Shown here piece after piece: positions 18,176 through 50,300 of a DNA stretch of 64,000 nt. Made by a program: the position numbers and the translations under genes. A model generated the notes under the pieces. It had not been told where the DNA came from. It searched no databases and saw only the letters and a list, made by a program, of their open reading frames with translations. The stretch spans positions 19,322,001 through 19,386,000 of the forward strand of contig NC_090291.1 of NCBI RefSeq assembly GCF_037392515.1, written 5' to 3'. The stretch is from Haliotis asinina (taxonomy: Eukaryota > Mollusca > Gastropoda > Lepetellida > Haliotidae). Positions within the stretch are counted from its first letter, which is position 1; the number at the start of each line of letters is the position of its first letter.

Positions 18176-24089
<5,914 letters not shown>

Positions 24090-26144: not shown

Positions 26145-27042
26145 ATGTTCCGATCTACCTTAAAGTACATGGTCCTGGCTCTGTGTCTCGGATTGTGCGC
26201 TTGTCAGTTTACCAGACCAAGAAGAATTCGGAGCGGGTTTGCTAGTTACCAGCAATGCACACAGTCGTTCAGTTCTTCGTCCACCGAACAGTTTTGTACA
26301 GCTTACGGTAGGTTAATTCGAATATATTTAGTTGTTTTAACACCACAAGTAAAAGTCTACCTATATAACATCGACCTCATTAATCCATTCTGCACCATGA
26401 AATCTAGTGACTGATGTTATGAGCAGCGAACCATGCTGATCTGTTTGAAGCAATGCTCCTTGAGTCTTGATAAGATAAGTTCCATAAAAAACTTTTACCG
26501 CTCACGCCTTGCCTTTCTGGTCAAAGTCAGTATATAGGAAGAATGGGGTCTACAAGGCGTGAAACAAAGATGATTTCTTCATTTAATGAGAAACAACAAC
26601 CCGGTCATGCTCAACATGTTACTAGCCTAACAGACTAAACTCTCGATATATTACTATAAACATTTCTAGCATAAACACGAGAATGTTCGTGAATGAGTGC
26701 ACTTTCAGGAAAGATTGTTAATCGAACGCTCAAACAGCAGGTTAATAAGAATCTGCACACTGGCAGGAATATTCATGATATATATCCACCGATAGGACTG
26801 TTTAGGAAATACACAATCAGATGGAATTCCCATGCAATATTTACAATTGAAGGACTGATCATGAAAATTTACAAGTGAGTGATATTACATGATATTCACA
26901 TGCCCCTCATCACTTGCCTTAAATGTGTTTTTCTCTTGCAGTGGGCCAGTGTGGTGACATCATCAGGAACCCCCAGTTCCCCCAGGCTCTCAGCTGCGGC
27001 AGCTGCATCTTTGCCTGGATGACACAATGCCGAAGCAGCTGA
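26145..27042 (+). CDS. Secreted six-cysteine peptide 1 of a four-gene array
   Basis: Two exons, 26145-26307 and 26942-27042, joined in phase 1, give 87 residues. I do not recognise the family. Residues 1 to about 20 are a signal peptide (KYMVLALCLGLCACQ). A basic stretch follows (TRPRRIRSGF). Six cysteines remain: C38, C51, C58, C73, C76, C84, with spacing x12, x6, x14, x2, x7. Exon 2 carries the family signature CGDIIRNPQFPQ and CGSCIFAWM, ending CRSS. Three disulfides are likely if secreted. The basic part may be a propeptide cut after Arg, or part of the mature peptide. AATAAA at 27202-27207 gives a short 3' end. Unlike copies 2 and 3 it has no N-glycosylation site between C1 and C2. Defence peptide, pheromone or secretion component are all possible; nothing in the sequence decides. 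Confidence 0.87.
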
Positions 27043-27372
27043 TCATCCTCACATCTCATCCAACATCTTTAAATGATTAATTTAATACTGATCAACCATC
27101 TGTCATTAACACACATCTGTAAGAAATACACAATTGTCAAATCGTATCAAAACGTAAGAAGTTAAACGTAAAATGAGATGTAATTAGTAATGAACAAATG
27201 AAATAAATCATATTTTTACAACTATTTATGTTTATCTCATTGTATTAACTCATCATTTATATTTGTTATGGTGACAAAAAAGAAAACAGTACCACTATTA
27301 CAGTTACTACGTGCACAATCACACACATATATCGAGGGTAGACTGAACTTACCCGATACTTTTCATACATGG

Positions 27373-27538
27373 CAGCGAGGCGGAGTAGCCTAATGGTTTA
27401 AGCGTTCGCTCCTCACGCCGAACACTCGGAGTCGATTCCACACATTACAACGCGTGAAGCCCATTTTCGGTGTCCACTGCCGTGATATTGCTAGAATATT
27501 GCTAAATGCGGCATATAACTAAACTCACTCACTCACTT
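27373..27538 (+). repeat. SINE S1, near complete
   Basis: Head GCAGCGAGGCGGAGTAGCC, tail GCTAAATGCGGCATATAACT, then (ACTC)n. Confidence 0.88.
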
Positions 27539-28275
27539 TAATATGTGGCCCTAGAATACGATGAAAGGGATCCATTTACGCTATAAATATGAAAACGTCG
27601 TTTTATTGTTTATATTCATTCGAAGGGAAAACGACGAAAAACCAGTAATAATCATTTAGTTATCATGCTTCATTTGCATTCTCATTATTATACACTGACC
27701 TAATTTCATGTGTCATCAACGAATATGACGCATTTCAGTTATATTTGACTGAAACATATCATCTATAAACATATTCAGAACGAAGTATTTTGCAAAGCCC
27801 ACGTCTTCACGGTTTACTTCATGCCGTGTATATAAAAGTACAGATTCTTCATGAATTGCATGCATGCGGAATTTAGAGACAGGACAAGGATTCCAGTCAG
27901 AACCGTTATGGTCTCTACTTTCGTAATGAATACAAAAACGGATCAAACTTCTTGTGCGCTGATTTATCGACAGGAACTAGATAGGAAGAGAGACCAATGA
28001 AACAATGACACAAGACGGCATCACTTTGGTAGAGTTAGTAAGAAACATGACCTTTGTATTCAGTCAGAAACTTGCAGTTGGAAAGGTTGCTGTAGATTCT
28101 ATATCCACAATATAGAGCAGTTACTTCTCCACAATTCATTGCTTCACCGAAACCCAAATTCCAAACGGTAATTGGAAAAATACACTTTTTAGCCACATCA
28201 TCAGACACTTAGAACCTCATCTTGGCAGTTCAATATGAAAGTCATCACTTTTACATCTATTCGAAGAAACATCAG

Positions 28276-28420
28276 ATGTGTTACCAATACGAATGTACAG
28301 GTGTGTTACCCATATGAGAAATAAATTGTGTGTTACCCAGCAGAAACAACGGATGTGTTACCCAGAGGAATATACATGTGTGTTACCCTGAAGTAAAAAC
28401 AGATGTGTTACCTAGTAATG
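28276..28420 (+). repeat. Imperfect tandem repeat with GTGTTACC core
   Basis: Six GTGTTACC motifs recur at intervals of roughly 25-30 bases, separated by A-rich spacers. Unit borders are diffuse. Confidence 0.55.
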
Positions 28421-28999
28421 AAACACCAAGAGTCTAAATCGAATTTCAAATATATTTTGCAGCTGCATGTCTAATGGAATTGTTTTATCGCACATACCGT
28501 TTATATGATACTATACACGACAGACTCGATCGTGATTGACAGCAATATTCCAGGAAAGTCAGAGCTGAGGATGCAAAATGCAGCCTGAAGGGTGAAACTG
28601 TGACTTTCTGTGAAAATATTTCGTGTTGGCGGCATAATATTGCAATTGCATAATGAATGCAGCAATACTCACCCCTTCCCTTGAAGTAACTGATAACATG
28701 TACACCTCAAGAATAAATGCTCTGTTAACCGTAGCTACATATGACAGTGGGCTAATTGTTGCTGGTTGCTGGTTGCTGGTTGACTAATATTTACACGGGA
28801 AATGTGCGTCAAAATAGGTACATATCAGAGCAGCCATGTCACGTGGCACTGCGGACAAAGGGAACAATGATTGTTCTGCAAAGAAAATCAATAAAAAAGG
28901 TAAGAAACTTTCAAACTACTTATTATTTTCTGAAGTGAGAAAGGGTTTATGCAAGCAAATACTTTGGTTGACGTGGGTGTGGTTGATCTCTTACTGCAC

Positions 29000-29420
29000 T
29001 ACAGCGTTCTCGACACCATGGAGAGCATCCTTTTATCAACACGTCATACTCCGAGACGTCATCATCGTCGACCTGTAGAACATTGTAGGTGGGTAATGTG
29101 GCCACCCGCAGAGACGGAACTTCCACAATGAGCCTACCCATATCATACAACGGGGCGACCATGGCAAAGCTTTCATCTCCCATTTCCTTCCGCCCATATC
29201 TACACATGTCCCAGAGACCTTGGTGGGGATGTTGCCCCTCCTACAACTACTTTCATCGTCATCAACTACCACTGCGTACAACATAGAGGGCTCAAGCACC
29301 AGAAAGACCATGGTAAACCTTTCATCTTTCATCACCTTCCGTCCAACTTGTATTGCTGAAGGCAAACTAGGGATGCTGTTCACAAACATCTTCATCAACC
29401 ACCGCTGTGAACTTGGTAGC
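29000..29420 (-). other. Diverged direct repeat with coding-like minus frames
   Basis: Two blocks resemble each other (around 29155-29200 and 29305-29345, sharing GACCATGGNAAA and CTTTCATC). On the minus strand they read GRKEMGDESFAMV and GRKVMKDERFTMV, each leading to a VDDD-type motif, in different frames. This may be a decayed duplicated exon or an unknown repeat. No family recognised. Confidence 0.25.
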
Positions 29421-29521
29421 ATTGTGCCAGAACAGAAAGATAAGTTTTACTCCTCCCATTTCCGTCTGGACATCTGTATATATACCTGACCATACCACGT
29501 GTCGATACTGTCCTCAACAGT

Positions 29522-30535
29522 ATGTCTTCAACAGTGCGAGCATGTGTGATTATTCTGGTTTGTGTCGCCCTCTGTGCTGGCCAAGGCCGGAGACCGAGGA
29601 GGTTCAGAATAATCAGATCAGGCTTGATTGCCTCTTCAGACTGTCACCAAGTGTTCAATGCCACCTCCCACGATGGGTTCTGTGCTTCATATGGTACGTA
29701 ACAGTAACACAAATGTTTTATTTGGTGATCTTTATTTCATTTTGGTTCTTTTGTATTGTTACCAATTTATTATACATACATGCATTCGTATATTTATTAA
29801 TTATGCAAAATATTAATGTGAGCACTCAGCAATATTCCAGTTTTATGTCTGGAAATGTCTGAACAAAACAATCAAAAACCCAGTGATCAATATCATGAAC
29901 ATCAATCTACGCAAAAAGGTACAAACTAAAATATTTTTATCAATTACATTTGGTAGTTGACTGGATGTACAAAAATACACGAGCTTCTTATATATTTGTC
30001 AATTGTATTTTTAAATATGAACCTCAACAACAGGTAAAATATATATCATATTTTACAAACTCAACTAAAACGTATGTATGGCATACGTGGAGTATTTCTG
30101 TAACATGTGAAACATGACTGATGTCTGTACGAATACACATAGTTGTGTAGAATAGTACCTGGATATTTTGTATAGGTCCCAGGGTAGAATAGGCCTTCAG
30201 CAACCCATGCTTGCTGTAAGAGGCGATTATGCTTGACTCGCTGACATGGTTGACACATGTCATGGGTTCCCAATTGCTCAGATAGATGCTCATGTTGTCG
30301 ATCACTGGATTGTCTGGTCCAGTCTCTATTATTTACAGACCGGTGCCATATGGCTGGAATATTGCTGAGTGTGGCGTAAAACTAAACTCACTCACTTACT
30401 CATTCACTCCTGGATGTTTTCTTTTGCACAGTTAACGATTGCGGCGACATCATCCGGACCCCTCAGTTCCCCGAGGCCGTCACCTGTGGTGGGTGTATAT
30501 TTTCCTGGATGGCCCTCTGCAACCAGTCCGGATGA
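29522..30535 (+). CDS. Secreted six-cysteine peptide 2 of the array
   Basis: Exons 29522-29693 and 30432-30535, phase 1, give 91 residues. The signal peptide is STVRACVIILVCVALCAG. The strongest basic stretch of the family follows (GRRPRRFRIIRSGL). Cysteines are C41, C54, C61, C76, C79, C87, with the same spacing as copy 1. An N-glycosylation site, NAT, lies between C1 and C2. The second exon has CGDIIRTPQFPE and CGGCIFSWM, ending CNQSG. A TATATATA box lies at 29477-29484 and AATAAA at 30810-30815. The start was chosen because it gives a complete signal peptide 38 bases after the TATA box. The intron (738 bases) carries an R2 repeat that ends just before the acceptor region. Confidence 0.87.
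30167..30405 (+). repeat. R2 repeat in the intron of peptide gene 2
   Basis: From TATAGGTCCCAGGGTAGAAT to the (ACTC)n tail, about 27 bases before the exon 2 acceptor. Confidence 0.85.
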
Positions 30536-30930
30536 GGATGACTCAAGATGCTCAACCCCATAAACGTCTTCAGTTCGTCTTCGCTTCTTGCCCAGCTCAG
30601 TAGCACTCCATAATCGATTGCCTGTTAGCCCCGAGTACATAGACCGATCAACCAACTGTTATGTCATTACGCCATATGTAAGTCTGAAGGGCAAAGCAGT
30701 GATAATGTTGTTATTTCCTTCATGCACACGTACTCACTTTCATATACATATATTCACTTTATGCCCGTTACAGCATGACAAGGCGTAATTCGACGCATTC
30801 TGTTATATAAATAAACACATGTGCCGCCTTCAACTGTTTCATTATTTCGTGTTTGAGTGATTATGGTTTTATTCCGATTTTAGTCACGTGTCAGTAAGAT
30901 CACGACATGAACACCACAAATGGTCTCATT

Positions 30931-31006
30931 ACATACGTGGGGAATCGAACCCGGGTCTTCGGCGTGACGAGCGTACGCATTAACATCCGTGCTACCTTCA
31001 TAATGC
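30931..31006 (-). repeat. SINE S1 head fragment, reverse
   Basis: GTGGGGAATCGAACCCGGGT and CTTCGGCGTGACGAGCG are the complement of the tRNA-like head. The tail is missing. Confidence 0.8.
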
Positions 31007-31386
31007 AGAAGCAAGATACCATTGACTTAACGTTCAAGACTACTGACCTGAATTAATTAATTATTAATAAGTAGTAATTGTACCGTGTAGAGCGACCTTA
31101 TCGCTGTTAAAAGTTTCTTATCTTACCGTGCAAGGATTTGCTGATTTTTGGGAGTTCCAGTTTAATCTAAGTATGATGTATGCCTTGTCAGAACACTTCA
31201 CATTGAGGTAGCTATCTACAACCTGCGCCTCTACACGTGTACCACAATAAAATCTGAAATGCTGAAAAAACTCACTTATGCAATAGATCACTCACTGCAA
31301 CGGAGCGTCGTCATTTTCATTTTATATCAGTCCTTTTCATATGTTTATTTTAGAGTCATTCATAGACTGGATTCCGGTTAAAACAA

Positions 31387-31512
31387 GGGCGGTGGGGGTA
31401 GCTTAGTGGTTAAAGCGTTCGCTCGCCCATCTGAAGACCCGGGTTCCATTCCACATGGGTACAATATGTGAAGCCCATTTCTGACGTCCCCCGCCGGAAT
31501 ATTGCTAACTCA
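31387..31512 (+). repeat. SINE S1
   Basis: GCGGTGGGGGTAGCTTAGTG head well kept, tail cut after GGAATATTGCTAAC. The sequence after it (31555-31615) resembles that after the SINE at 33850. Confidence 0.85.
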
Positions 31513-31927
31513 CACCCTCGCCCCGGGTAAAACAGGTATTCGGCAACCTTTATGTATTTGATCGTAATCTCACTGTTTGTCCTGGTTCCACGACGTCCTC
31601 GTACCTTTCCAGAGGTTACTGAAATAGCAACATTTAGCCACATAAAATAAATATCTTGTTTCTCACTGTTCTGTAAAGAATGGGTAACTAGTTGGGATGT
31701 TACTTACATTTATTCATATTTTTTTCTGATTTTTTATACAATGTTAGTCGAAATCTTGGAATGCCGGAAGTTGAGACGGATTTCGGATGTCTCTCGGCTT
31801 TATGCTCGAGAATTTACCAATGCAATAAAACAGTAGGGTCAGTCCAAATTTTAGGTTCGGATAATGAGAAAAAGGAAATGATTGTATGTGGTCATCTTGC
31901 AAAGGAACACTGATATTTTGTAAAAGT

Positions 31928-32146
31928 GTGAGTGAGTGAGTTTAGTTTTACGCCGCGAAATAAGTAAATATTCGGGTCTGGACCAGACAGTCCAGTGATC
32001 AACTGCATGAGCATCGGTCTACCCAATTGGGAACCGATGAAGTCTCAACCAGGTCAGCGAGCCTGACCGCCCAATCCCGTTAGTCCCATTTTACGACAGG
32101 CGTGGGTTATTGAAGACCAATATTCTAACCCGGACCTTCACGGATG
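31928..32146 (-). repeat. R2 repeat, reverse
   Basis: Starts GTGAGTGAGTGAGTTTAG and ends GGACCTTCACGG. A short internal part around the ATATTCCAGCTATAT block is altered. Confidence 0.85.
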
Positions 32147-32277
32147 ACATTTTGTAAGAAAAATATAAAGCACACCTTTACAATTAAGAGGCAAATCGAA
32201 AACCAAAAGAAGCTATGAAATAATACCAGCGCGCAAAAAAAACGTTTGAAGTGTTGCAAACCCTGTGAAACGTAGAT

Positions 32278-32536
32278 TGAGTGAGTGAGTTTAGTTTTAC
32301 GTCGCACTCAGCTATATGGCGACGGTCTGTAAATAAAGTCTGGACCAGACAATCCAGTGATCAACAACATGAGCATCGATCTGCGCAATTGGAACCGATG
32401 ACATGTGTCAACCAAGTCAGCTAGTCTGACCACCCGATCCCGTTAGTCGCCTCTTACGACAAGCATAGTCACCTTTTATGGTAAGCATGGGTTGCTGAAG
32501 GCCTATTCTACCCCGGGTCCTTCACGGGTCGTGAAA
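32278..32536 (-). repeat. R2 repeat, reverse, full length
   Basis: Complete from GAGTGAGTGAGTTTAGTTTT to CCCCGGGTCCTTCACGGGTC, and one of the best copies for defining the family. Confidence 0.92.
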
Positions 32537-33849
32537 CGTAGAATGCTCTGATTGCAGATGCATTGGTTGCCTAAACATACGCTCTTCGATGACGACAAGC
32601 TGTCCCACGCATTTCATTTATTCCATAATTTCACCACGGGAAACGTGGGTGGTCTAACCCTGGTGAGCAGCTACACACGCAGGCAGGCACGCAGGCACGC
32701 AGGCAGACAGGCAGGCAGGCAGTCACGCACGCACGTCTTCCCTGCACCCAAAGCTCAACTTTATACATTTCAAACTCATTTCAGTTATTTGATACAATCT
32801 TGTAACTTAAGCCGAGACCTAGTTTCCATTTGACTGCACCCCCGCACTTACAAAAGCACTTGATGTTGTTTTCGAGTACGTATGCCCACTACTGCACCGA
32901 AATGCACTTTTAACGACCCCATATGTGCAGTCTCGACATACACTTGCAATGTGCAATAGTGCATAAAACCAGCGGTGCACATGTGACTCATTTCACACAC
33001 AGACACAGCAATATAAATCAAACAAGAAATCTGAGCTACATCAAATGACACCGGTGTGGAAATTATGTATATATAGGATAAGCCACTTTTCAATACTGTT
33101 ATATAACATCCGTAGGGTGAGTGTTACGGAAGATCATACATACAGTAGTTTTGTTTAAACTGCTTTGCCTTTTGAAACAAATATATGTTACTGGTCGCTC
33201 AGATACAACTGAAAGCAGGTGGAGGAGGCAGGGAGTTCGATCCCCCTTGCGCCCTTGCTTTTGAGCTGCATGACAGCTACAAGCTTCATTGATATCATTT
33301 CCGGTTTTTTTGGAAGTTAGCATTAATAACCTGTCGGCCGTAATTCAGATCAACCTCATCAAAACAGACTTTAGTTGTTGGTAGAGAATAATCTGCGCCC
33401 TGTTGTAAATTCTATTTAAGACGCTAGGAACCGGACAGGGCAGGCAAACTATCGACAATCTGTATTGCCCACAAATTTAACTTAACGTGGTCACATTCAA
33501 AGTATTGCGATTGTTGCAAACTCTTACAGGTGCGGTAGGCAGAGCGAAGATAAGCCCACACAAGCTTTTGCAAAGATATTGTTCCACAATGTTTTCTTTG
33601 TGCATTAATCCCACCTTTTGTAAACATGTGTATCTTATCATGTATACCCACTTTTGGGAAAGAGCTAAACAACACTCCTATATTGACCAATATTGAAAAC
33701 ATGGGTACACCTGAAGTTTCTGAAATAAATAAACACAACGTATTTATTTTAGTTAATGTGTGAAAATAGAAGCAGTTGAACGGGTCAGAACACTTTAACG
33801 TAACAATGAATATATAATATGTTGATACTTGTCTCTGTTTATGAGGGAC

Positions 33850-33995
33850 TAGTGGGGTAGCCTAGAGGGTAAAGCGTTCGCTCGTCACGCCTAAGACCCT
33901 GGTTGGATTCCTGACATGGGTACAATGTGGCAAGCCCAATTCAAGTGCCTCTCGCTGTAATGTTGATGGAATATTGCTTAAAGCGGCTAACATTC
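33850..33995 (+). repeat. SINE S1
   Basis: AGTGGGGTAGCCTAGAGGGT head and a GGAATATTGCTTAAAGCGGC tail. Confidence 0.85.
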
Positions 33996-34893
33996 CTTTT
34001 GAGTCAGAAACGGACTGATGAAATGCAAATTTTATCATTGTACAAATTTGCCACATAAATATAAATAGTACACATGTTTATCGTTTACTAATACCCAACA
34101 GCTTTCTGATATTTGAAAATTTTCAGGACTCCATGTAATATTCTCCATCGTATTCTCACTCTTTGTCTTCGTACCACGAAGTCGTACCTCTGCTGTGTCA
34201 CATGCTGTCTTTATTCTTATTACTTAACAATACTATGCTTCACAGATATGTTTCGTAAGAAAACATGTCTATGATATGATTTAAATGAAAATTAAAACAA
34301 AATGACGATTCAAACAAATATACATATATATATATTCTACGTCGGAGCTCACGTCCGAGCGTACCCAATATCCAGTTATGGAAAGGAAAACCAATAATTT
34401 GTTCTTCATCAACGTTTCATGTCTTTGCCTTTGTTTCATCTTCAAATATCAAAGCCTTCAAATTCCCTACGATAAAAATGGGGAAGTAAAAATTTAATGT
34501 CAAATTGACATTCTTCCTTTTGCACAACTTATGCTGAAGTGTCTAGTTTTTCATTCACCATTAAAAATGTTCAGTCGTTTGAGAGCGATCTGATGAGTAA
34601 CTTTTGACACAGACTTTGAAGTGCAATGATAAAATGTCCCTAACTGACAACTACCATGACAGAAACATGCACTCCGTCAATGATATAGCGACCATGGCCA
34701 CTGTTTGGATCGTGATGTCCGGAACGCCTTGCTCACTTTACAGAGTCTGGTCAAACAGCAGGAAGTGTGTGATGTGATCTTCACAGACAGTTTGAACATA
34801 CATTTCCGCCTCAGATACGATGTATATAATGACGATCTGACTAGCAGTTGTCATTAACATCTTTTCTCAGCGTTAAAAAGCAAACACTATACA

Positions 34894-36186
34894 ATGGCAC
34901 GTCATCTGTTTGTGTGTGTGCTCCTACTGGTCTGCATTGCCCTCTGTGCCAGCCAAGGCCGACGACCAAGACCACTTAGAAATCTACGAACTGGATTCGC
35001 CGGCTCGGATGATTGTCAACAGTCTTTCAACGCTACCAAAAACCAGTTTTGCTCTTCTTACGGTAGGAATCGAATACTAAAGCCATTCTGATGATTTCTT
35101 GTACATTGTATCATTTACATAAAGCTGAAAACAGTTTCAAAGTACGGAATTCTTTATTTGAACCTCCGTTATATATATCCGCCATGTTCCGGATTGCCCA
35201 TGCCAACGTCTTGTTAAAATAGCCCTGTATTTAAGGTGTCTGTTTTCACTGAATCATGTCACGATCCCTTATATAGGAAACATCCCATCACGTTGTGTAC
35301 TGTCAAATATTCTTTACTTTACGTGTTTAGTAACAGCGTACGCCTCCAGGGAGCGGTTGGGTAGCTTAGTGGTTAAAGCGTTCACTCGTCACGGCGAACA
35401 CGCGGGTTCAATTCCCCAACACGTGTTCAATGTGTGAAGCCAATTTAGGTGTCCTCTGTCGTGTTTATGCTGCAATATTGCTAAAAGCGGCATAAAGCTT
35501 TACTCACAGTCAGCCTCTGTCTCATAAATGAGTATTAATTTACGCCGCATCCAATAATCATGGCTGGTCATACCAAGAATGGATTTTGAACTTTGACTGA
35601 TTTTGTTCAACTCATGGTAGTTATTTGACGTGACGTTTATGTCGAGCCGGGCCATACATATCATGAAGCTATATTGAATTAATTTGTGACGTCATTCCAT
35701 TGCCTGCTCGTTCCAGTACTGTTCAGGAATGAAGCGATGTGTACCAGTTTCAAATTGAAGACTTCATTTTGCCATTTGGCCATTTTTCCATTCACTTTTG
35801 ATAACAGAAATATTCCCAATGCTTTAAATGTAGTTTAAGTAAATCCTGGTAACTTTCCGATCCTTAAAAATAATGTGCCTCGTACCCTCCGGGACCTCGG
35901 TAATAATAGTTTAAGGAATGGAGATTTACTCGGACATTTCCCTATACATTACCAGGACCCAGGGTACATAATCAAACAGAAAGGAAAAATATATTACCTT
36001 GATGATCGAGGATTGGGCCCATTATGGGACCTATTTTGTATGATGATCACTCAAGTTAATCTTTCATCCACAGTTGACCAGTGTGGGGACATCATCCGCA
36101 ACCCCCAGTTCCCCCAGGCTGTGACCTGCGGGGGCTGCATCTTCACCTGGATGACTCAGTGCGGTCAGCCAGCAGGCAGAGGTTGA
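34894..36186 (+). CDS. Secreted six-cysteine peptide 3 of the array
   Basis: Exons 34894-35062 and 36074-36186, phase 1, give 93 residues. The signal peptide is HLFVCVLLLVCIALCAS. A basic stretch follows (QGRRPRPLRNLRTGF). Cysteines are C41, C53, C60, C75, C78, C86; the first loop is one residue shorter than in copies 1 and 2. It keeps the NAT glycosylation site of copy 2. Exon 2 carries CGDIIRNPQFPQ and CGGCIFTWM and has the longest tail after the last Cys (GQPAGRG). The TATA-like box is at 34823-34830 and AATAAA at 36493-36498. The 3' untranslated part holds a duplicated block of about 140 bases. The 1,011-base intron carries a SINE. Confidence 0.87.
35349..35505 (+). repeat. SINE S1 in the intron of peptide gene 3
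   Basis: Starts GGGAGCGGTTGGGTAGC, 286 bases after the splice donor, and ends in a TTTACTCAC-type tail. Confidence 0.85.
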
Positions 36187-36480
36187 GTCAGATAACAAGC
36201 CACTCCCGAATAACGCTGCATCGTCCCTGGACCACGAAATCGACAAAGAATTTTACAAAGCTTTATATTTTACCCGAACAATGATGACTTAATGAAACCT
36301 CGAAGACCGATTACAAGCCAGATGCTGAAAGAGGCTGAGTCAGATCACAAGCTAATCCTGAAGAACATTGCATCCTCTATGGACCACGAGAACGACAAAT
36401 AATTTCACTAATCTTTATATTTTTACCTCAATATTGATGAGTTAATGAAACTTTCAACTCCGATTTCAAACCAAATGCTG
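36187..36480 (+). repeat. Tandem duplication in the 3' end of peptide gene 3
   Basis: Two diverged copies (about 36181-36320 and 36337-36480) share GAGTCAGAT.ACAAGC, TGGACCACGA, TTTATATTTTACC and GATGCTGAAA. They lie between the stop codon and the poly(A) signal. Confidence 0.7.
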
Positions 36481-37621
36481 AAATGAATGATCAATAAAAT
36501 TATTGAAAGTACAGAAAAACAACTTTTTATTATTCAGTCTTGGATTTCGTGTAAGAATTCGTGCAATTTGGGCTTATCGTTAAGCTCAACTAAACGGAAA
36601 TGGAAACTGGGTAAGATTTAAGGTTGATTGCGTATCTTCATACACCATTCACAATATCAACCGCAAGTATATATACGCCACTCTCGACCATTTATAACCT
36701 GTGAAACTGCGGCGTAAAACAGCAAAAAGATAATGACTTGGTGGTGCTATGCTTGTAGCTGTTCACTTGGTAGCAGCCCCTCGAATAGCTGCAACAATGC
36801 TGGTGCGGCTTAAAGTAACATGTACCCACTTACTCACTTACTCTAGCTCACGGACAAACATTAGTTCATGTACCAGTATAAGTACATTTTATGTTGTCCG
36901 TGTCGTAATAGTGCTGACACATCGCTAAAATTCTTGGTCACATCATTAATAGCCACTCACTAGTGAATGTAAAGGAATGATTTGTGGCACGTCCAGCAAA
37001 AAAATATACACACCCATAAAGTATGGCATGCTATCCTTTGCGGGTTCACACGGAGCAATAAAATGTATAATGTCGGAATTATTGTACTTGACAATATACT
37101 CAGTTTCGTTAAATGAACCCCACTGAGTCCACAGCAGCCATGAAAAGATACCACGACAGGTGGTCTCTGCTGGCGTTTGATTGACATGGCGTCACATGTA
37201 AGACATGCACACACACATGCAGGCGGTCATCAGGCTGTGTTTTTCAGCAAAAGATACGCACCGCTAAAAATTAGAAGGAAGCATCGAAACATAATTTGAA
37301 CTGCTAGTATCATGCTTTATTACATATATATACTTGCATGTCCTTTACAGGATAACTTTGTTGAAGATTCATATTTCAATCGAAATTTACCATGCCTTGC
37401 TATGTATACAGTGTTCAAGCTACATTATCGCAGCTTGTGAACATACAAGTTTCAACCATAATAAATACTGGTTAATGTCATGAGCAACACCCCAAGTCTC
37501 GTGGTACCACCAAGTTAAGTTGGGACGTAATATAGAAGAATAGAAACAAAATGGAAACTTTGCGAGGAGTCCTAGGAGGCAATAAGTGCCTAAATGTATT
37601 GTATGACCCTGAGAGACATAC

Positions 37622-37900
37622 ATGTACGCACACACACAAACACACACACAAACACACACACACATGCATGTATGTATGTATGTATGTATGTATGTATGTA
37701 TGTATGTATGTATGTATGTATGTATGTATGTATGTATGTATGTATGTATGTATGCATGTATGTATGTATGTATGTATGTGTGTGTGTGTATGTATGTATG
37801 TATGTATGTATGTATGTGTGTGTGCGTATGTATGTATGTATGTATGTGTGTGTGTATGTATGTATGTGTGTGTGTGTGTATGTATGTAAGTATGTATGTA
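37622..37900 (+). repeat. (CA)n and (GTAT)n compound microsatellite
   Basis: About 45 bases of CACA units, then roughly 240 bases of GTAT with GTGT interruptions. The long Cys/Val/Tyr/Met repeat frames here are artefacts. Confidence 0.95.
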
Positions 37901-37917
37901 TGTATCTCTATGACTTA

Positions 37918-38063
37918 TTTATTATGTAACCATGCATGCATGTGTCTCTATCACTATTATTTATTATGTAACCATGCATGCATGCATGCATGTGTCTCTA
38001 TCACTATTATTTATTATGTAACCATGCATGCATGTGTCTCTATCACTATTATTTATTATGTAA
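37918..38063 (+). repeat. Short tandem repeat, three to four units
   Basis: Units contain TTTATTATGTAACCATGCAT then GTGTCTCTATCACTATTA. Unit length varies with the number of GCAT steps. Confidence 0.9.
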
Positions 38064-38084
38064 CCAATGAAGATCCACTTGAGA

Positions 38085-38270
38085 ATTGGTCTTCTTCGGC
38101 AACCCATGCTTGTCGTAATAGGCGACTAACGGGATCAGGTGGTTAGTCTTGCTGACATGATTAACACATATCTTCGTATCCCAGCTGTGTAGATCGATCG
38201 TCATGATGTCGATTACTAGATTGTCTGGTCCCAATTCAACTATTCGCAGACATTTGTCACATAGCTGAAC
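38085..38270 (+). repeat. R2 repeat, degraded
   Basis: GGCAACCCATGCTTGTCG, GCGACTAACGGGATCAGG and ATTGTCTGGTCC are readable. The tail is worn. Confidence 0.75.
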
Positions 38271-39070
38271 TAAAGCATCGCGAAACAACCAGCCATCCAA
38301 CCAACTTATATGCTGTTCAGACAAGCCAGCGCAGCTCTCACATGTAGATCCACTTACAACATGATCATATGTTTATACTCGTTCGTGTTTGCTGGATCAA
38401 TAATAACTGCATACAAGGTTTATAATGCATAACGCGACCTCAAGGGCTCTACGATATGTATGTGATGCTTGTATATAGTTCCTCAAATGGCTTAAAGTTC
38501 TTGTCTTCACGGGTCAGTCTTAAAGCTTATAACGAATATATATGTGCATTACACGTGTCACGATACACGATCTCTAAAAACCTCCGCTATTTCCTACTGG
38601 GAACTTGATTCAACGACGAAGTGTCAATAAAATACAATTAAAGAGTATTTATCTGTGTCCTTCCAGATGGTGAAAATATTGACAGTCGTGAAACGCTTTA
38701 GAAATGCTCTAAGAGCTGGTAGAGTTTTTCTCACGAAGATCATGTACCCGTATATGTCACAGGACATTGTCGTCATATCATTTGTCCATAAAATGAAATA
38801 CAAGTAAACGTAAGCCGTTACATGAGCGAGAAATAGCGTCTTACTTAAATAATATATGCCATGTCATGATCAGCTTCCATTCATGAAGTATATTTGAAGG
38901 CAAGTCTTTTGTGTTGAGCTTGAATACCCTTGCATTGAAGTTGGCCACCCTTTCTTGAAGGAGCCTACGTAAATGCATCAGGTTACGCCAGGGTTCGCAC
39001 AAGAGCAAAGTGTGGACAGACTTGAGAAAATCCAGGCTCAAACTGCTACAAGCCGATGGCCACATACAGC

Positions 39071-39073
<3 letters not shown>

Positions 39074-39130
<57 letters not shown>

Positions 39131-39131
39131 T
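39074..39131 (+). repeat. (ATC)n trinucleotide microsatellite
   Basis: About 19 perfect ATC units. It encodes Ile, Asp or Met runs in overlapping frames, none in a gene context. Confidence 0.95.
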
Positions 39132-39239
39132 ATCGAGCACGGAAATGACATCATGGGCGTTACGTCAACTGGTGCATCCTTACATGTAAACCAGTAGGGA
39201 GGTGGAAGGGTCGTGGTGTTATTTTTTGCGTTTTTGTTT

Positions 39240-39450
39240 GTTTTTGATGCCACACTCCGCAATATTCCAGATATTCAGCTTCGGCCTGTGAAAAATTAAG
39301 TCAGACAATCCAGTGATCAACACCATGAGCACTGATCTACGCAATCGGGATGCAATGACGTGTCAACAAGATCAGCCAGCCCGATCACACGATGCCAGTC
39401 GCCCCTTTCGACATGCATGGTTGCTGAAGATGAACTTAAACTCGGGCCGG
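39240..39450 (-). repeat. R2 repeat, reverse, degraded
   Basis: GCCACACTCCGCAATATTCC, CAGACAATCCAGTGATCAAC and ATGAGCACTGATCTACGC mark an old copy. Confidence 0.65.
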
Positions 39451-40171
39451 ATGTATCTTCACAAGACCATGAAATCCACTGACTGCTGTCATGTAAAGGG
39501 GCGATGACCTTCGTTATCACGCCAGACATCTCTTCCAGACTGAACGTCAATACCAGCAGGACAACATCATTCCCAGTTCAATCAGAGGCAATGACATTGT
39601 TGTGCAACCCTGGCATGGGATGGTGTCTTCATACTGAACTACAGACACTTCAGACGATGATCGAGAATAGGAAAATCATCATCGACTTGTCAGCGAGGAA
39701 CGGAATTCCTAAATCTCCTTCGATGAGAGTCTCGTATCACAGCTAATGGAGGTTACACACACTAATTACTGACTGACACCTTCCATTTGTCACACCCTTT
39801 TTCGTTTTCTTACGAAATAATATCCATGTTTTTTATGGTTAAATATGCTAGTGCTGACGATTTATTCTTCCTTTATAATGCTTAATGGACATGTTCAGGG
39901 CCACCTTTCAGAAAGCACTGAGGTGATCGTAAGTCAGAAGGGAAACCCTAGAGCAATGTTAGAGAATGGGAGTTAAGGTTAACCTTTGTAGAGGCTTTGT
40001 ACAAACCCCTGAACAATATTTCAGTAATACAAGTTTGATAGTTGAAATTCGGAAAGGGTAATGTATATACGTTTACCACCTCAGTGAAACTCCGCCACGA
40101 ATACCTGGACAAATTGTCATTCTCAATCTTTAAAACTCCCCATTATTGGTATTGTGCTGACACAGCAACAA

Positions 40172-40215
40172 ACGTAAGTGAGTGAGTGAGTTACAATGTA
40201 ACGTAACACCAGCAA
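40172..40215 (-). repeat. R2/S1 tail fragment, reverse
   Basis: AGTGAGTGAGTGAGTTACAA with a worn AACACCAGCAATAC. Too short to assign to one family. Confidence 0.4.
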
Positions 40216-41181
40216 TACAACAAATTCAACAAATACAACAAGGGCAATTAGTGGGACCGCTATCGTAAGTTTTTGAAATATTAGTTAGAAAATATTTTAC
40301 TCACAGGCTAAAATTCGCTGCACCTGTACTTTCTCAGGTCATTAACACATGTACAAATCAGAACAATTCGTATATATGAAATGTTTACTTGATCATCGCA
40401 CTGTTTCCTGTATGAGATGACGATCACAATATTTACGCGTGGCCACAGAGAACAAAAACAATATACGATTCAACCAATGCAAACTAACCATTACAATGTG
40501 TTACAATGTCCTCTAGCCACATACATTAAGTAAACTAACGGCAAGAGAAACAATAGCATGTCGAAATCACTGATATTAGAAAATGACTTACCACTATTGT
40601 GAAAAAGGAAAGTGAATTTTAATGACAGGTGTATGGGCCAAATAATTCTTACCTTCTTCTGAGTAGCATATATTTACATATACTATAACAGTGTGAATCT
40701 ATGACAAGGACACATACCATGTTCTGCCTAATCAAGCGTCATGCAGACTGCAGATCATTTAATTTCAAAGCCATTTCCGTGTTTACACTGCATGCATGCA
40801 CGGTTCAATTGATTGAACTAATATAAAATAACTAATTGATATATTTATTGATATAAGTTTCACATAATGGCAATATATTGTATCAAATCTCTTCGTGGTT
40901 TTACTCTCCCATAGTTTATGATAGTTGTTGTTTAACAATGATGCATCATCATTTGCCTAAAGATGCGCTTCCCAAACTAAAGGATGGACCAGGAAGATGT
41001 TGCTGCATTAACTGATCGCTGCAATCACGCTGAGTGAATGTTGCAGTGATGCACACCGACAAAGACCCCTGATGGTCCTTAATCCCTATGTGTAAGGCGT
41101 TCCCCGTAAGCTATTCGTATAAATATAAGACATTCTCTTACGCACATTATCGACTTCTCTCGGTGTATTTCTTCTGCAACC

Positions 41182-42461
41182 ATGTTTCGTCCAGTCGCCA
41201 TCATTGTCATTGTGTTGGTCTGCATCATCGAGCTGCAAACTACTGATGGACGTCGGCATTTCAAGATACATAGGAATGGTTTCATGGGTACCAAGGACTG
41301 TGAAGAAGCGTTTGGCTCTGCAGCCAATAATCACAGCGGTGCTGCTAAGGAACAGTTTTGTACCACGTACGGTAAGAACGTATGCTCCATTTCTTTTCTG
41401 TTTTCGTGTGTGTGGGTCCACCCAGATCTGTATGTTTGTCTATTCGTAAGCAGTCACATGTGAATGATGTGTCATAATATTTGAGTGAGACTATCTGTCC
41501 ATCCATTTACAAAATGTGTTATGTTGTGTTGTCTTGTTTTGTGAACTCTATGAATATGTACTGTTTGCAACTATTGCTGTCTTCGTCATTCCTGAACGAA
41601 GTGGTGCAGCTTTGTATCATACATTCATGCTCATGCCTGCACTCTTCACTTAAGTGCGGTGAGGTAGTGCTGTGGTTAAACGTTTCACTCTTCACGCCGA
41701 AGACCGGAGTTCGATTCCCCACATGGGTACAATGTGTGAAGTCCATGTCCTATGTCCCCATATTGATATTTGCTGCAATATTGTTAAAAGCAGCGTATAA
41801 CTTCACTCACACAGGCTTACATGCCTCTGATCAACTCGTATATCCAAGAAGATCTGTGCTAGTCAGCTGATAACTAATCCTCAAACAAATACCCAAGTAT
41901 ATACATAAGGAGTGAGAGTTGCCTAGCTGATAGATAGGCCTGACGCCATGTTTGTTTACACTGTGAAAGTAGTCCCTAAATGTTTGCATGTGACCTCTCA
42001 CATTTGCATCGATATCCGTATATGGCCCTATGGATACCAAAAATATCCGTTGGCTTTATCCTGCCCAGAACACTACTCGTTGCATGATAAATGATCTGTG
42101 GGTTCTCCGGCTTAATGGGTTCTATAGAATGTAGAATTGCGTCCCTTCAACACGACAGGCTCCGTGGATATTGACCCGGAAGGGCAGTCGTCTAGATTGC
42201 ATCATGTGAGACATCCCCCCCACAGCAGCATGCCTTGGTGTAGCTTAAACACTCTTATAATCAGATTCGTCTTTTACCCAGTTCAGCACTCACACGTCGG
42301 ACAATCACTGTATACCACGTACAAGCGCCGTTTGTGTCTCTTTTGTTTCAGTGAACATGTGTGGCGACATAATCAAGACTCCCTTGTTTCCCGAAGCTGT
42401 GAAGTGTGGTGGCTGCATCTTCGCCTGGATGTCACACTGCACCAAGCCTACCAGCGGCTAA
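41182..42461 (+). CDS. Secreted six-cysteine peptide 4 of the array, most diverged
   Basis: Exons 41182-41371 and 42352-42461, phase 1, give 99 residues. The signal peptide is RPVAIIVIVLVCIIELQ. The basic stretch is DGRRHFKIHRNGF, so the R-x-G-F ending seen in the other copies is kept while most Arg residues are gone. Cysteines are C40, C60, C67, C82, C85, C93. The first loop is 19 residues, with a SAANNHSGAA insertion; all other spacings are as in the family. Exon 2 reads CGDIIKTPLFPE and CGGCIFAWM, ending CTKPTSG. A TATAAATA box lies at 41118-41125. No canonical AATAAA is visible close downstream. The intron (980 bases) carries a SINE at almost the same offset as in copy 3. Confidence 0.86.
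41655..41812 (+). repeat. SINE S1 in the intron of peptide gene 4
   Basis: Starts GTGCGGTGAGGTAGTGC, 283 bases after the splice donor, in the same orientation as the SINE in copy 3. Confidence 0.85.
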
Positions 42462-43560: not shown

Positions 43561-44324
43561 TACAAACCAATCTGGGCACATGTGTATGACCTTAGATACA
43601 TGAAATATTACGGACTGGAGATTAAAATATTGAAAGCTGAAAAAAAACCTAATCACACGACGGAAACAACGCTGACAAGTATCGTAATTGTCCACAAAAC
43701 CTGTCAAGACATTTGAAATAGTACATCGTCAAAGGAAGGTCTCACCTTAGTTGTTACAAACTGGAATGTAAACGGTCAGGTAAATTCATTCCCATTGAGC
43801 AGGCTGGTGTATCCAAGAATAGTGTACGATTGTTTCCATAGTAAGAAAATTGGCGTCAAATCGAATTTAAAGAGAATAACACTGGAAACTACGCCGACAA
43901 AAGCAGGTTGTGCATATGCATGGTGGTTTAAGTAACGCCAAATAAGTGCTTAAGAATAGAACCTTTGGCTAATATAGAAAATCCTGGAACTGGATTTAGC
44001 AGTTATTAGAACAAACGCGAAGGAAACACTTTAATTCGAAAGGTGAAATGCCTCATGACTGTTTCCCCTTTACTCAAATACTATAGTAGGTAGTGAAAAG
44101 GAAGATATTATGTCTGTAGCCGTAGAGTAAAGCAAAATAATAAATATAGATAATAGAATAAAAATTTAGAAAAATAAATGAAAACGTCAAAGAAGCATAG
44201 GATGTGACGTCATTGCATTGTGACACCAGAGCACAGTAAATGAATAATGTTGTATGTCATTCGACAGCAGTACTATTTGTTTTAAGAACATGAAGAAATA
44301 CGTTCCTGGCCGTTAGTGTTGTCT

Positions 44325-47300
44325 TTATAGGCCTTGAATACGGGTCTCTATCCAGTCCAAATGCATTTGGACCCCCTGGTATACACTAGGGCGAGTGGTG
44401 ACACAATCAGAATCAGGAGTCGCAAGACCCACCAACGTCGCACTGCCGTCACTGTTGTCGCATACCAACATCCAACCATTGGCATCCTAAAACAAGGAAA
44501 CTGTGCAGTTCAGTTATGCCTCGCCTTATTTAATTATGATTATATTGTTCGTGCAAGGATGAAAGATCAAACTATACGATAAAGGCTTATTCCATGTTAT
44601 ATCATAAGTTGGTGGGTAGCTTTCTTTGCGTTTCTTAAAATGATATAAGCAGTAATACTTGCGTACACACTTAATGAAGAATAAGTGACTAAAAGTCATC
44701 AACATAATTATGAAGTACGAAAGGTTAATGGTGTCACTATGGTTACTTACATATATCATGCAACCTTACATTCTTGTTATTTCAATTACTTTTTTTAATT
44801 TTCACAGCGTTTGAATTTTGTTTCGTTATTTCCACAACTTTTTAGAAATTCCTATTATTTCTTCGCTGGTTATAGAAACCCACAATTCGACAAAATGCTC
44901 TAAACAACGAGTAAAATGTTGTTTTTGTAAAGTTGGAAATAACATCATAATCGAGGAAACGATGTGATGTAAATTTATGCAACAATGAGAAATATGGGCG
45001 TTTGTCACTGTTCCAAAAATGGCGGAGCGATTAGCGTTTTCTCGCCTGGCCCTAATAAAGAACGTATTATAAAAGTCTCGATGACGAGTGAATATTTACG
45101 ATCGTTGATGACAACATTGATCCTGTGGAATAAACTGAGATGCTGGTATGTAAGCAGTCTTTGTCACTTTACCAGTCACACAATTTTTATTCAACCGTCG
45201 AATTCAAATTTCCCTAAGCAGCCATTTTAGTTTGAGAACGAAACGGCCTTACTCACTCACTGACGCAATTGCAAGTGGCGGAAAGGACCCAATTGTTACG
45301 CGAATCGCGGTACATCGCTTGTAAGCGATTGGTTGTTTGCAAGGTACCCCGTATGGACAATATACACCTTGGAGTACCAGTGTCTATCCAGACTTACCTG
45401 ACAAGGAGCAAAGTTGTCATTCTCTGAGTCCGTACAGACAGAGTCGTTGTAAATGGTCCTGCTGGGATCCAGGCTGTCGTAGATGGTTTGACATGCTTGG
45501 AATGGTAGGAATGTCACAGATGTTTGTTGTTGAGAAACAGAAATGGCTGATGGAGCCTCTGTAACGTTAGGGGGAATAGAAACGAATAGCATTACACTAG
45601 AACACAGATGCCACCAGTGTGACCAGAGGATAAATTTACATTGACATAACGATGCATTGCATGGCTGCTTGTGAATGGACATAAACTCAACTGATATTTC
45701 AATACTGACAAAAACTATAAAAAAAATTCAAAGCAACAGATTATTATTAGACACAAATTCTTCATGCTTGAATTTGTTTATTTAATTATCCAGATTGGAA
45801 CCTTCCAATGCTGCCACGTTGATATTCTGACCTTTCTGAATGCACCTTTTAAACAAGTAAAACTATTGTGAGTGATTATGGTTTTACGCCGCTTTTAGCA
45901 ATATTCCAACAATATCACGACACCAGAAATTGTCTCACACATGTACACATGTGGAAATCGAAACCGATTCTTCAGTGTGTTGTGCGGACACTTTAACCAT
46001 TAGGCTACCCTACATGACATTTTCTAAAATGCCATCTATAAGTCATTATGAAAAGTTAATAGATAATGCATCAACAATGGTTTAAGAAAGGTAAAAGATT
46101 GTCACGCTCTCTCTGATACACATGGATCAAAGGTCGACAACAAAACGAATGGAGACACTAGAAGAAGTCTTTGGTCAAAATGTAGGATAAATGGTGCCAG
46201 GAACAATGCTGCTATCATAATGGTAACATGATTTGCCCTCAAACACTGAAAATGGATGCTTCAAAGACATGAACTAACACCACCAGCACCATCTCTACAT
46301 ACAGAACTTCATACTACCTTTTCCCCAGCCTGTCAAGCGGCATCTGTCCCCTCTGTTGAAGACGTCGTTGGTGTTCGGGAGACAGGCCGAAGAGGCGCAA
46401 TCATCGGATTTGAAACCGTCAACGAGGCTCAAGATAGCGAGATCCCCTTTCATATCTGAAATCAGGAAGATTCGTGGCATCATGGCATTAAGGACACGGT
46501 ATGTCACGTTAAAAATACTGGATGTAAGTGGTACGTGAAAAATGGCAATACTATGAGGTGTCTGTGTTTTGCCGTACAAGGAATTGTTCTAAAGAGCTTT
46601 TCAATTATCAAGGTACGCGGTTGTCCCAAATGAGACTCACACGTGGCCAGATAATTTAATCAATATACAATACTCACTGACCATTTAAATCTAGACGTCG
46701 GAACGCGGAAACACTACGAATTTTCGAATCGAAGACATAATGAAAAATTGGAATCGGTTATGGAAACTCAAAATGATTATTAGATTTAAAGAATATTCGG
46801 AATAGTATAAGGGTGTTTGTCCACTGAGTGAGGGCTCTAGTAACTAGGCTGTCCAATGGTTCAACATTTTCATCTGCAAATAGCCTGTCAAACCGTTACC
46901 TGTACATTAAATGTCATTAGGCTCATGCGAAGGCGGTCATGGGAAAGACCAAATGTCCGAGGCAAAGAAATAAGGGAAATAACCCCATCGCTTCTTATTA
47001 TTGTGGGTTTTACGTTCGAATACAAGATATTCCTGTTTATTATTTATGGTCTGTCGACATTAAAACCCTCCCCTGTGAGGTTAACCAAAATATTAAGCTT
47101 CAGCTACTTGTACCACTTTCGCGTTTTTCACCCACATAAATTAACTGACATTAACTGGCGTCAATAACATTGTCAACTATCTCACTGTTTTGTGGCCAAG
47201 GATAAAGACAGTACTACTTCATGTCTAACCATGATACCTGATAAATCCGCAGTCTTATCGAACAGTGTCACGTTGGTAATGGTCCTGGTCTGTGTCCCAC

Positions 47301-50300
47301 ATGTCACGCTGCCGGCGACAGCAAGCGACTGCAGTCTTGGCACGTCCAGTGTCCTCTTCAATCTGGTGTTGTTGAACCAAATAATGAAATTGTAAGTCAC
47401 CATAAAACAGGTGGACACAAGATGCATGTTTACTTTGTACAGAAGAGAGGGTTTTAGTGTAAAGGTCCCGAATAAATTGTACATAGAGTTATTATGGCGC
47501 TATTCTGGGAAAGGAAAATACAGGTAGAACATTTAACGCCATATATTGAATATTATCAAGTTTTGTGCAACGTTTACAGTCCCAGTGTCAAAAATGGCTC
47601 CGTCGCAACTGCTTCAATGGGAACATTCATGGATAAAACAAAATAGGGAAATTTATCATGGTAAGACTAACCCTTGAGAGAATGAGTGAGTTAAGTTTTA
47701 CGCCGCATCCCACAACTTTCAAGCTGCGAGAGGCTTTCAAAAGTAGTGAGCCTAACGATATTCTCTATGCCAAATCTTTGTAAAGTTTCCATTTTATTCT
47801 GAAGGGATCATTATCAAAGTCAGATCCAAAGTTTCACTTATGTCAGCAATGTGGGTCACGAGATATCAGTCATCATAACAAATTGGGGTACAATATTTGT
47901 AAAATAATTGCAGAAAATGAAAACGAAGTGTCACTTGGTACCTCGTCACTAATGGTATGTCCTCAAATGATATCATATAAAACATGTTCAGAATGGTATT
48001 TGATGAATTCCAATCATACTCAACAACCAAAGATTTGGATTGCTTGATTCAGAGAGTGACTGTGTTTAAGGACACCCCCATTTTCGTTCTGTCACTTATG
48101 CACAAACAAAATCAGACGGTTATTCTTCCAGAAACTTGTAGAAGATGCGTTGACATGCGTACTGGCAGTTAGCTACCTGCCTATGAGTATCCCAGATGGT
48201 ATTCAGCCTTGCAAAATACTAGAATCAGGATTTTATTGAGAAAGTGTAATTCCAAACGTAACAGATGTTAACCCGATTAGAATTCAAACCTATGAGCAAC
48301 AGTACGATAAGCGATACCGGTACAGGTAAAATATGAAACAAAATCAGTCATGACTACGTATTTAAAATACTTGCTCCAACCAGACCCTCGCTCCAGTCGG
48401 CTATGGTACGTATATTGATTTGTTCAAGTCCTTAATAAGGCATGTGTATCCTAAGAGACAATCCAATGGAATGTGTCGATTCTGTGCCATCGTAACCCAG
48501 TGGATCAATGCTCACAATATGAATACCTGGACTATATGGTCCAGACTCCATTATTTAGACGTTACCGTCATTTATCTGACGTTGGAATGCATCATTTGTT
48601 AATAGTACACACGACAACACAATGAACAAAGGGTAAAATTTTCCTTACCCCTCGGCACATTCTGCTGTTGCAAGGATCTCCGTCATGGACAGCAAGACAC
48701 CCGAACATACGGGTAACGTGGTCGAAACATCCCCATCTACGTTAACGATTTCAAGGCTGACACTCCACGAGCTTCCAAAACAATCTGCCCCGGGCACAGA
48801 ACCTGGATCGTTTACCGACCCACAACCTACAGATTATAATTGAAACAATGATACGCGTTACACAAAGCCAAATGTTGTCTTTTAGACCTGAACAGTAATT
48901 AAGGATAATGATGAATATACAGCTTCTTTTTCTTGTGAAAGGTGATGTTTCGACATAGATTCTGTTAGACAAGAACTTTTCTCGAGACGTTGCCTATCAC
49001 AGAATAAAGGAGTTGTATATCCATGCAATTATCATAATTCTTCAACAGTAATGTTTTAAATGTAAAAAAAACCCATATAGCTGCAGTTCTTGTGGGCATG
49101 ACCTGGCCTAAAAGCAGCAATAAATTGACGATTTTAAAACGATCCCATCCTAATACAAGAAACTGGCCCCTCATGTCCACTTCCTCACCAATTGCCCATC
49201 TGCTTGCCACATTACGTTGAAGTCATCATATTTCAGACCAACATTTAATGAACCAAATGCCAATCCGCTTGCGCATGTCTGTTGCCATATTAAGCATTAG
49301 TCATCATGTTTACGACCGACACATAATATTGGACCACAGCTTTAGCCACTGGATAGATTTATAATTTTACCGCAAAATCATCCAATCAAAACTGCTAGAT
49401 TTCTCAGTCCAGACCGGTGGTTTCGAAAACTGTTGCCTTGGTTAGACGACTGATTCTGGTTTAATGAAGAACCCTTTGAATCTGATAAAAGTAAAGTTAA
49501 ACATGACAAAATGCAAGTCTACTCGTTCTGGTTTCATGACATCTTTGAACGACATTTAGAAGCGATATAAATGGGGACGAGACACTATGGATGTCAACTT
49601 CTTTATTTCGAGAAACACTCCACATTTCGGAGTATATTCTAAATCCCCCATTAGGTAAATGGAAAACTAGGAAGCAGATTGCACGTGAAACAACAGTGAT
49701 ATCACCAGGTGGCTGTGGTCATTTGACGCTGACTGGTCATGATGATAAAGACGAAGTCATGTATTAATGCAAGCCACGTATTAATCGTCATCTTTCATTC
49801 TGTTTGTCCCTGAATCACCAAACTGTAATAGTTGAACACGAAAACGTCTTCAAACGCGTCACCTCTTATTATGAAATAATCGTAACGTTTATTCGGACGG
49901 ACAGGCGACTATTCAGTATAAACTACGAAAACAATGTCATGTCCCTAACCAACTGTTAAAAGCTGTTTCCATTACATGAGCCCGACTTCAGCGCAAACAG
50001 GTCTAAATGAGTCACCATCAACTGGTATACCATGTTTTAGAAGTATACGCATACGGCCCGACCGGTTGCAAAAGCGCGCAAAGTCATGTCAAAATGTCCA
50101 GCTCGTGAAAGCATGCTGAAGTGACTCTCAAATTATTAGATTTATTCAGGATTTGAGACGGTTAATTTTTTTTAGCTATGACTACGACTAGTAAGAACTA
50201 AGCCATGTAAAGACGCACTGGAAACAATAAATCTGTTTTCAGAAGTCCGAAAGTGATACATGGCGGTTTCAAAATTATCTCTAACACTAGCAGATGTATG

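What the first reader, a model, noticed from the sequence alone, without database searches (positions are those of the whole stretch)
26145..42461. Tandem array of four unrecognised secreted six-cysteine peptide genes
Four same-strand, two-exon genes share a TATA box, a signal peptide, a basic stretch ending R-x-G-F/L, an identical phase-1 intron position and a signature in exon 2 (CGDII, then P.FP, then CG.CIF.WM). Cysteine spacing is x11-19, x6, x14, x2, x7. I know no family with this pattern; attractin-type pheromones, big defensins, myticins and macins differ in spacing. Lineage-specific tandem growth of small secreted peptides often marks defence, mating or venom-like roles, but function is open.
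Basis: partly seen in the sequence, partly recalled or inferred. Interest (0 to 1): 0.88.

Follow-up and report, generated by a model that had tools for sequence, protein, structure and literature searches.

The report
Abalone cluster of secreted peptide genes
An abalone-type genome carries a cluster of four old, conserved genes for small secreted peptides with six cysteines that match no described family we could find; their build suggests extracellular signalling peptides, but nothing yet shows what they do.

Summary
Four plus-strand, two-exon genes encode secreted peptides of 87, 91, 93 and 99 aa with one phase-1 intron site, six cysteines and a shared exon-2 signature. Synonymous change far exceeds amino-acid change in 6 of 6 gene pairs. 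Searches of the 1.14 Gb genome found the family only here. One relative turned up in about 5.8 billion proteins: Haliotis rufescens LOC124116229, uncharacterised, 75% identical to gene 4. No significant Pfam, NCBIfam or PDB match.

New here: (i) the basic stretch ends in [RK]xx[RK] directly before xG[FL] in 5 of 5 proteins, like a propeptide cut by a convertase; (ii) the remaining domain of 58-69 aa would be neutral to acidic, which weakens a cationic antimicrobial reading; (iii) 4 of 5 proteins end in Gly, a possible amidation donor; (iv) two segments have helical periodicity; (v) the duplicates are old.

Best explanation: processed, disulfide-pinned extracellular signalling peptides, hormone- or pheromone-like. 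Function is inferred. Kinship to attractin or ITP/CHH is not supported by sequence. The structure tool was off, so the fold is untested.

The parts
26145..27042 (+). Gene 1: exon 1 26145-26307, intron 634 bases, exon 2 26942-27042; 87 aa
   Evidence: TATAWA at -60; A[AT]TAAA at 27202
29522..30535 (+). Gene 2: exon 1 29522-29693, intron 738 bases, exon 2 30432-30535; 91 aa; ends in Gly
   Evidence: TATAWA at -45; A[AT]TAAA at 30810
34894..36186 (+). Gene 3: exon 1 34894-35062, intron 1011 bases, exon 2 36074-36186; 93 aa; ends in Gly
   Evidence: TATAWA at -71; A[AT]TAAA at 36493
41182..42461 (+). Gene 4: exon 1 41182-41371, intron 980 bases, exon 2 42352-42461; 99 aa; ends in Gly; probable orthologue of H. 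rufescens LOC124116229
   Evidence: TATAWA at -64; no standard poly(A) hexamer within 700 bases

Best explanation
The array encodes a small family of secreted, processed signalling peptides, hormone-like or water-borne-signal-like. A signal peptidase removes about the first 20 residues. A proprotein convertase then cuts after [RK]xx[RK], just before xG[FL], and so frees the peptide from a short basic propeptide. Three disulfides pin a small, mostly helical domain of 58-69 aa. In g2, g3 and g4 the C-terminal Gly may be turned into an amide. The product acts outside the cell, most likely on a receptor. Shown: gene structure, conservation, six invariant cysteines, the conserved processing motif. 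Inferred: actual cleavage, disulfide formation, helical fold, amidation, receptor action, and the signalling role itself.
For: Six cysteines invariant in 5 of 5 proteins. [RK]xx[RK] directly before xG[FL] in 5 of 5 although the segment varies in length (8-11 residues); random re-ordering of the same residues gives this in 63 of 100,000 trials for five, 157 of 100,000 for the four window proteins (motif named after seeing the rows, and the rows are related). Between g4 and P0001 the predicted mature domain is 57 of 68 identical, the part before it 17 of 31, as expected if the part before is discarded. Predicted mature net charge -4 to 0. C-terminal Gly in 4 of 5 while the tails differ in length and letters. 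Helical hydrophobic periodicity in two of three segments tested: 42 and 12 of 2000 shuffles reach it. Single-product precursors and three disulfides in about 58 residues are the build of Aplysia attractin as described in PMC3484142 (passages). An N-X-S/T site lies between C1 and C2 in g2, g3 and g4, and attractin too carries one N-glycan.
Against: No expression, tissue, receptor or activity is known. P4 is Lys, not Arg, in g4 and P0001, and P1 is Lys in P0001, which is poor for furin (recalled preference). g1 lacks the C-terminal Gly. The C1 segment shows no clear helical periodicity (286 of 2000 shuffles). No sequence likeness to a known peptide hormone or pheromone exceeds shuffles. A short basic propeptide is found in some antimicrobial and shell proteins too (recalled).
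Confidence: 0.42

Rival explanations
1. Host-defence (antimicrobial) peptides: the basic segment stays on and gives a cationic secreted peptide whose disulfide domain binds microbes or membranes.
For: With the basic segment the net charge would be +2 to +5. Small tandem-duplicated cysteine-rich secreted peptides are often defence genes (general knowledge).
Against: The motif before xG[FL] suggests that the basic segment is cut off, which leaves charge -4 to 0. Four old copies under purifying constraint, not a young, quickly diversifying set. No Pfam match.
Confidence: 0.2
2. Structural or matrix proteins of mucus, egg coat or shell, held together by disulfides.
For: Abalone shell proteomes hold many uncharacterised small secreted proteins (PMC6003135, passages). 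The neighbourhood holds other secreted mosaic genes with mucin-like, TSP_1 and trypsin-like parts.
Against: Compact domain with fixed cysteine spacing, no repeats or biased composition. The motif strings CGDII and CIFAWM do not occur in the main text of PMC6003135; its supplements could not be searched.
Confidence: 0.17
3. A far-diverged branch of a known helical three-disulfide hormone or pheromone family (ITP/CHH-type, or attractin).
For: Recalled ITP spacing 15,2,12,3,8 is loosely alike; recalled attractin spacing 8,6,5,6,7 shares the 6 and the last 7.
Against: Scores do not stand out: 32 of 200 (ITP), 129 of 200 (attractin) and 194 of 200 (eclosion hormone) cysteine-fixed shuffles reach them. 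No PF01147 match in 4 of 4 proteins at E<=10. C2-C3 spacing differs from ITP, C3-C4-C5 spacing from attractin. No ITP gene of this genome could be found for comparison.
Confidence: 0.12
4. Venom-like or other prey- or predator-directed peptides.
For: Small, secreted, disulfide-rich, in tandem.
Against: Abalones are grazing snails with no known venom (general knowledge); low-rate conserved copies rather than a hypervariable mature part.
Confidence: 0.04

Closest known systems
Haliotis rufescens LOC124116229, uncharacterized protein (P0001, 101 aa)
   Same: Same family: 75% identical to g4, six cysteines with spacing 20,6,14,2,7, same junction, basic stretch and Gly end; grouped with g4 at 100/99
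Attractin (Aplysia water-borne pheromone)
   Same: Single product behind a signal peptide, about 58 residues, three disulfides, one N-glycan (PMC3484142, passages); g1's predicted domain is 58 aa
   Different: Spacing differs (8,6,5,6,7 recalled); no sequence likeness above shuffles, 129 of 200 reach it; no convertase-cut basic propeptide that I recall
Ion transport peptide / crustacean hyperglycaemic hormone type (PF01147)
   Same: Three disulfides, helical, amidated (recalled); short weak local likeness around C3
   Different: C2-C3 is x6, not x2; 32 of 200 shuffles match the score; no PF01147 match; intron place differs from that recalled for CHH genes
AP7 and other small abalone shell proteins
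   Same: Small, secreted, with cysteines, abalone (PMC6003135, passages)
   Different: AP7 is described with four cysteines for metal binding and a calcium-binding N-terminus; its sequence was not at hand to compare

Membership tests
Attractin-type pheromones | Cysteine spacing 8,6,5,6,7 (recalled) | tested here: not met
   11-20,6,14,2,7 in 5 of 5 proteins
Attractin-type pheromones | Sequence likeness above chance | tested here: not met
Attractin-type pheromones | Release into water and mate attraction | not testable with these tools
   No expression or behaviour data
ITP/CHH (PF01147) | Match to the Pfam profile | tested here: not met
   None at E<=10 in 4 of 4 proteins
ITP/CHH (PF01147) | Spacing 15,2,12,3,8 (recalled) | tested here: not met
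   C2-C3 is x6 and C3-C4 x14 in 5 of 5
ITP/CHH (PF01147) | Helical fold with pairs 1-5, 2-4, 3-6 (recalled) | not testable with these tools
   Structure tool switched off; only hydrophobic periodicity was computed
Processed secreted signalling peptides (general kind) | Signal peptide | tested here: met
   Hydrophobic N-terminus, best 11-residue mean 2.7-3.9 Kyte-Doolittle in 5 of 5; no trained predictor used
Processed secreted signalling peptides (general kind) | Convertase site before the mature peptide | tested here: inconclusive
   [RK]xx[RK] in 5 of 5, but with Lys at P4 or P1 in g4 and P0001; no cleavage data
Processed secreted signalling peptides (general kind) | Receptor and physiological or behavioural effect | not testable with these tools
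   Needs experiment
Cationic antimicrobial peptides | Net positive mature peptide | tested here: inconclusive
   -4 to 0 if cut at the motif, +2 to +5 if not

The most novel reading that the evidence does not exclude
A peptide-ligand family of abalones, not derived from attractin or ITP/CHH: convertase-cut, helical, three-disulfide, partly amidated, kept as at least two old paralogous lineages (g4 and g1-g3), each perhaps a separate signal, for example in spawning or trail communication, with its own receptor.
Probability: 0.27. Interest if true: 0.68.

Novelty: new variant of a known kind. Interest (0 to 1): 0.47.

Why it matters
Peptide signals and secreted effectors of vetigastropod snails are thinly described. 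If these are convertase-processed ligands, they are a small, well-bounded set (four genes, one locus) that can be tested directly by mass and by synthetic peptide in a farmed genus. If they prove to be defence, mucus or shell proteins, they still define a gene family that public annotation leaves unnamed.

Tried and rejected
Kinship to attractin, ITP and eclosion hormone: not above shuffles. PF01147 over the own genome: 23 weak matches; the one flagged over the cut-off with its neighbours (L037) is a tandem-repeat ORF; the others were not read. Locust ITP as a query gave 2 weak matches (E 0.516 and 0.61) whose frames do not look like ITP. So no ITP gene of this genome was at hand.

Further copies: over four protein searches there were 6 matches outside the array, all at E>=0.249, 5 of 6 with stops inside; taken as chance and not read further. 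One-mismatch motif places: 8 of 9 read, none a relative. Weak family matches: US10 to g2 at E 0.13, an NCBIfam exception model to P0001 at E 0.17 (two of the five proteins given), PDB best E 0.39-0.85 to unrelated proteins; all taken as chance. Rfam: no match in 20000-50000. The bacterial promoter scan has no bearing on this genome.

Literature: ten searches. The locus name and the motif strings gave 0 papers; the others gave no paper that I recognised as about this family. This covers open-licence main texts only; supplements could not be read. Passages were seen of PMC6003135, PMC6778792, PMC3484142 and PMC4500399; all other papers were seen as listings only. PMC1929040 is not held.

Protein searches two and three added nothing: (g3, residues 28-88) found no candidate at all, not even P0001, so that search misses relatives; one search found P0001 alone. 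The processing motif has a permutation control; the C-terminal Gly has none, and its weight is a judgement.
Full report
What was checked. The four genes were rebuilt from the sequence. Each has an ATG, a hydrophobic signal-like start, a GT-AG intron of 634, 738, 1011 or 980 bases at one position in phase 1, and a short second exon. The four proteins share 29 invariant columns, the six cysteines among them.

Is it more than chance? Yes. The exact DNA pattern for CGxCIFxWM occurs four times in 1.14 Gb, all here. A profile of the four genes plus P0001 hits the eight exons at E<=1.5e-19 and its next match in the window and 10 kb of each flank is at E 1.6; the genes are in the profile, so this shows separation, not discovery. 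An exon-2 profile has three further weak frames (E 0.018-0.13), read and judged chance. Independent support is the codon pattern: pS 0.73-0.83 against pN 0.23-0.36 in 6 of 6 pairs over the whole length. A second support is H. rufescens LOC124116229, which joins the two parts at the same place; the evidence behind that record was not seen.

How widespread is it? Whole-genome searches with g3, g4, g1 and g2 return 8, 7, 7 and 8 of the 8 array exons and six outside matches at E>=0.249. In about 5.8 billion proteins, three searches found P0001 alone. That search needs shared five-residue words, and one search missed even P0001, so absence elsewhere is weakly tested.

Age. Corrected synonymous distance over the whole length is infinite in 4 of 6 pairs and 2.9 and 4.2 in the other two; exon 2 alone is less extreme, with 0.85 for g1-g3. 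Introns and 500-base flanks do not align, except for one 158-base match between introns 3 and 4 that lies in a dispersed repeat. In the unrooted five-protein tree g4 joins P0001 at 100/99; the order among g1-g3 is unresolved. Most simply, g4 parted from g1-g3 before the species split. The array is old and constrained, not a recent burst.

How it probably works. In 5 of 5 proteins the basic stretch ends in [RK]xx[RK] right before xG[FL], although its length varies. Random re-ordering of the same residues does this in 63 of 100,000 trials for all five, 157 for the four window proteins. The motif was named after seeing the rows, and the rows are related, so the figure is a guide. It looks like a convertase site; P4 or P1 is Lys in g4 and P0001, which is weaker. 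Cut there, the domain is 58-69 aa with net charge -4 to 0; uncut it would be +2 to +5. Between g4 and P0001 the domain is 57 of 68 identical, the part before it 17 of 31. Four of five proteins end in Gly, which could be turned into an amide; g1 ends in Ser. The C2-C3 segment and the C4-C6 segment have helical hydrophobic periodicity (42 and 12 of 2000 shuffles reach it), the C1 segment does not (286 of 2000). I infer a small, helical, disulfide-pinned ligand. A receptor, a tissue and an activity are all missing.

Rivals. A cationic antimicrobial needs the basic segment to stay on. A mucus, egg-coat or shell protein is possible; nothing ties the array to shell. The faint ITP match is kept as a lead only. 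The build as a whole resembles attractin as described in PMC3484142 (passages): single product, about 58 residues, three disulfides, N-glycan. That is likeness of kind, not kinship.

Verdict. A real, apparently undescribed, small gene family of an ordinary kind (secreted cysteine-rich peptides in tandem), with a more specific mechanism than first proposed. Interest is moderate: function, tissue and fold are open, and taxon-restricted families of this type are common (general knowledge).

Noticed in passing
window 44300-48850, - strand: Gene with trypsin-like exons (three pieces joined: PF00089 E 4.3e-9); by eye the His and Ser motifs look lost, so probably an inactive protease. A TSP_1 ORF (56133-56522) and a Thr-rich mucin-like ORF (51377-51859) lie upstream on the same strand; whether they are one gene was not settled.
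   Followed up: partly
window 14800-17760, - strand: Second secreted mosaic gene: cysteine-rich start, mucin-like linker (ORF 16968-17357), then an exon that looks trypsin-like by eye (PF00089 E 0.048, under the cut-off). The peptide array thus lies between two such genes.
   Followed up: partly
window 18170-19700, + strand: Signal-peptide-like start near 18174 and a cysteine-rich exon near 19.6 kb, read by eye; no Pfam match for the exon.
   Followed up: no
window 37664-37905: (ATGT)n array of about 60 copies between genes 3 and 4, next to a 42-base tandem repeat at 37883-38066.
   Followed up: no
window 27382-27445, 31395-31458, 33854-33917, 35358-35421, 41661-41724: Dispersed repeat (GGGTAGCYTAGTGGTTAAAGCGTTCGCTCG...), five copies in the array region, two inside introns 3 and 4; tRNA-derived SINE-like by eye.
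   Followed up: no
window 13926-14414, + strand: ORF that looks like the end of a LINE reverse transcriptase by eye; no Pfam match at E<=0.01.
   Followed up: no
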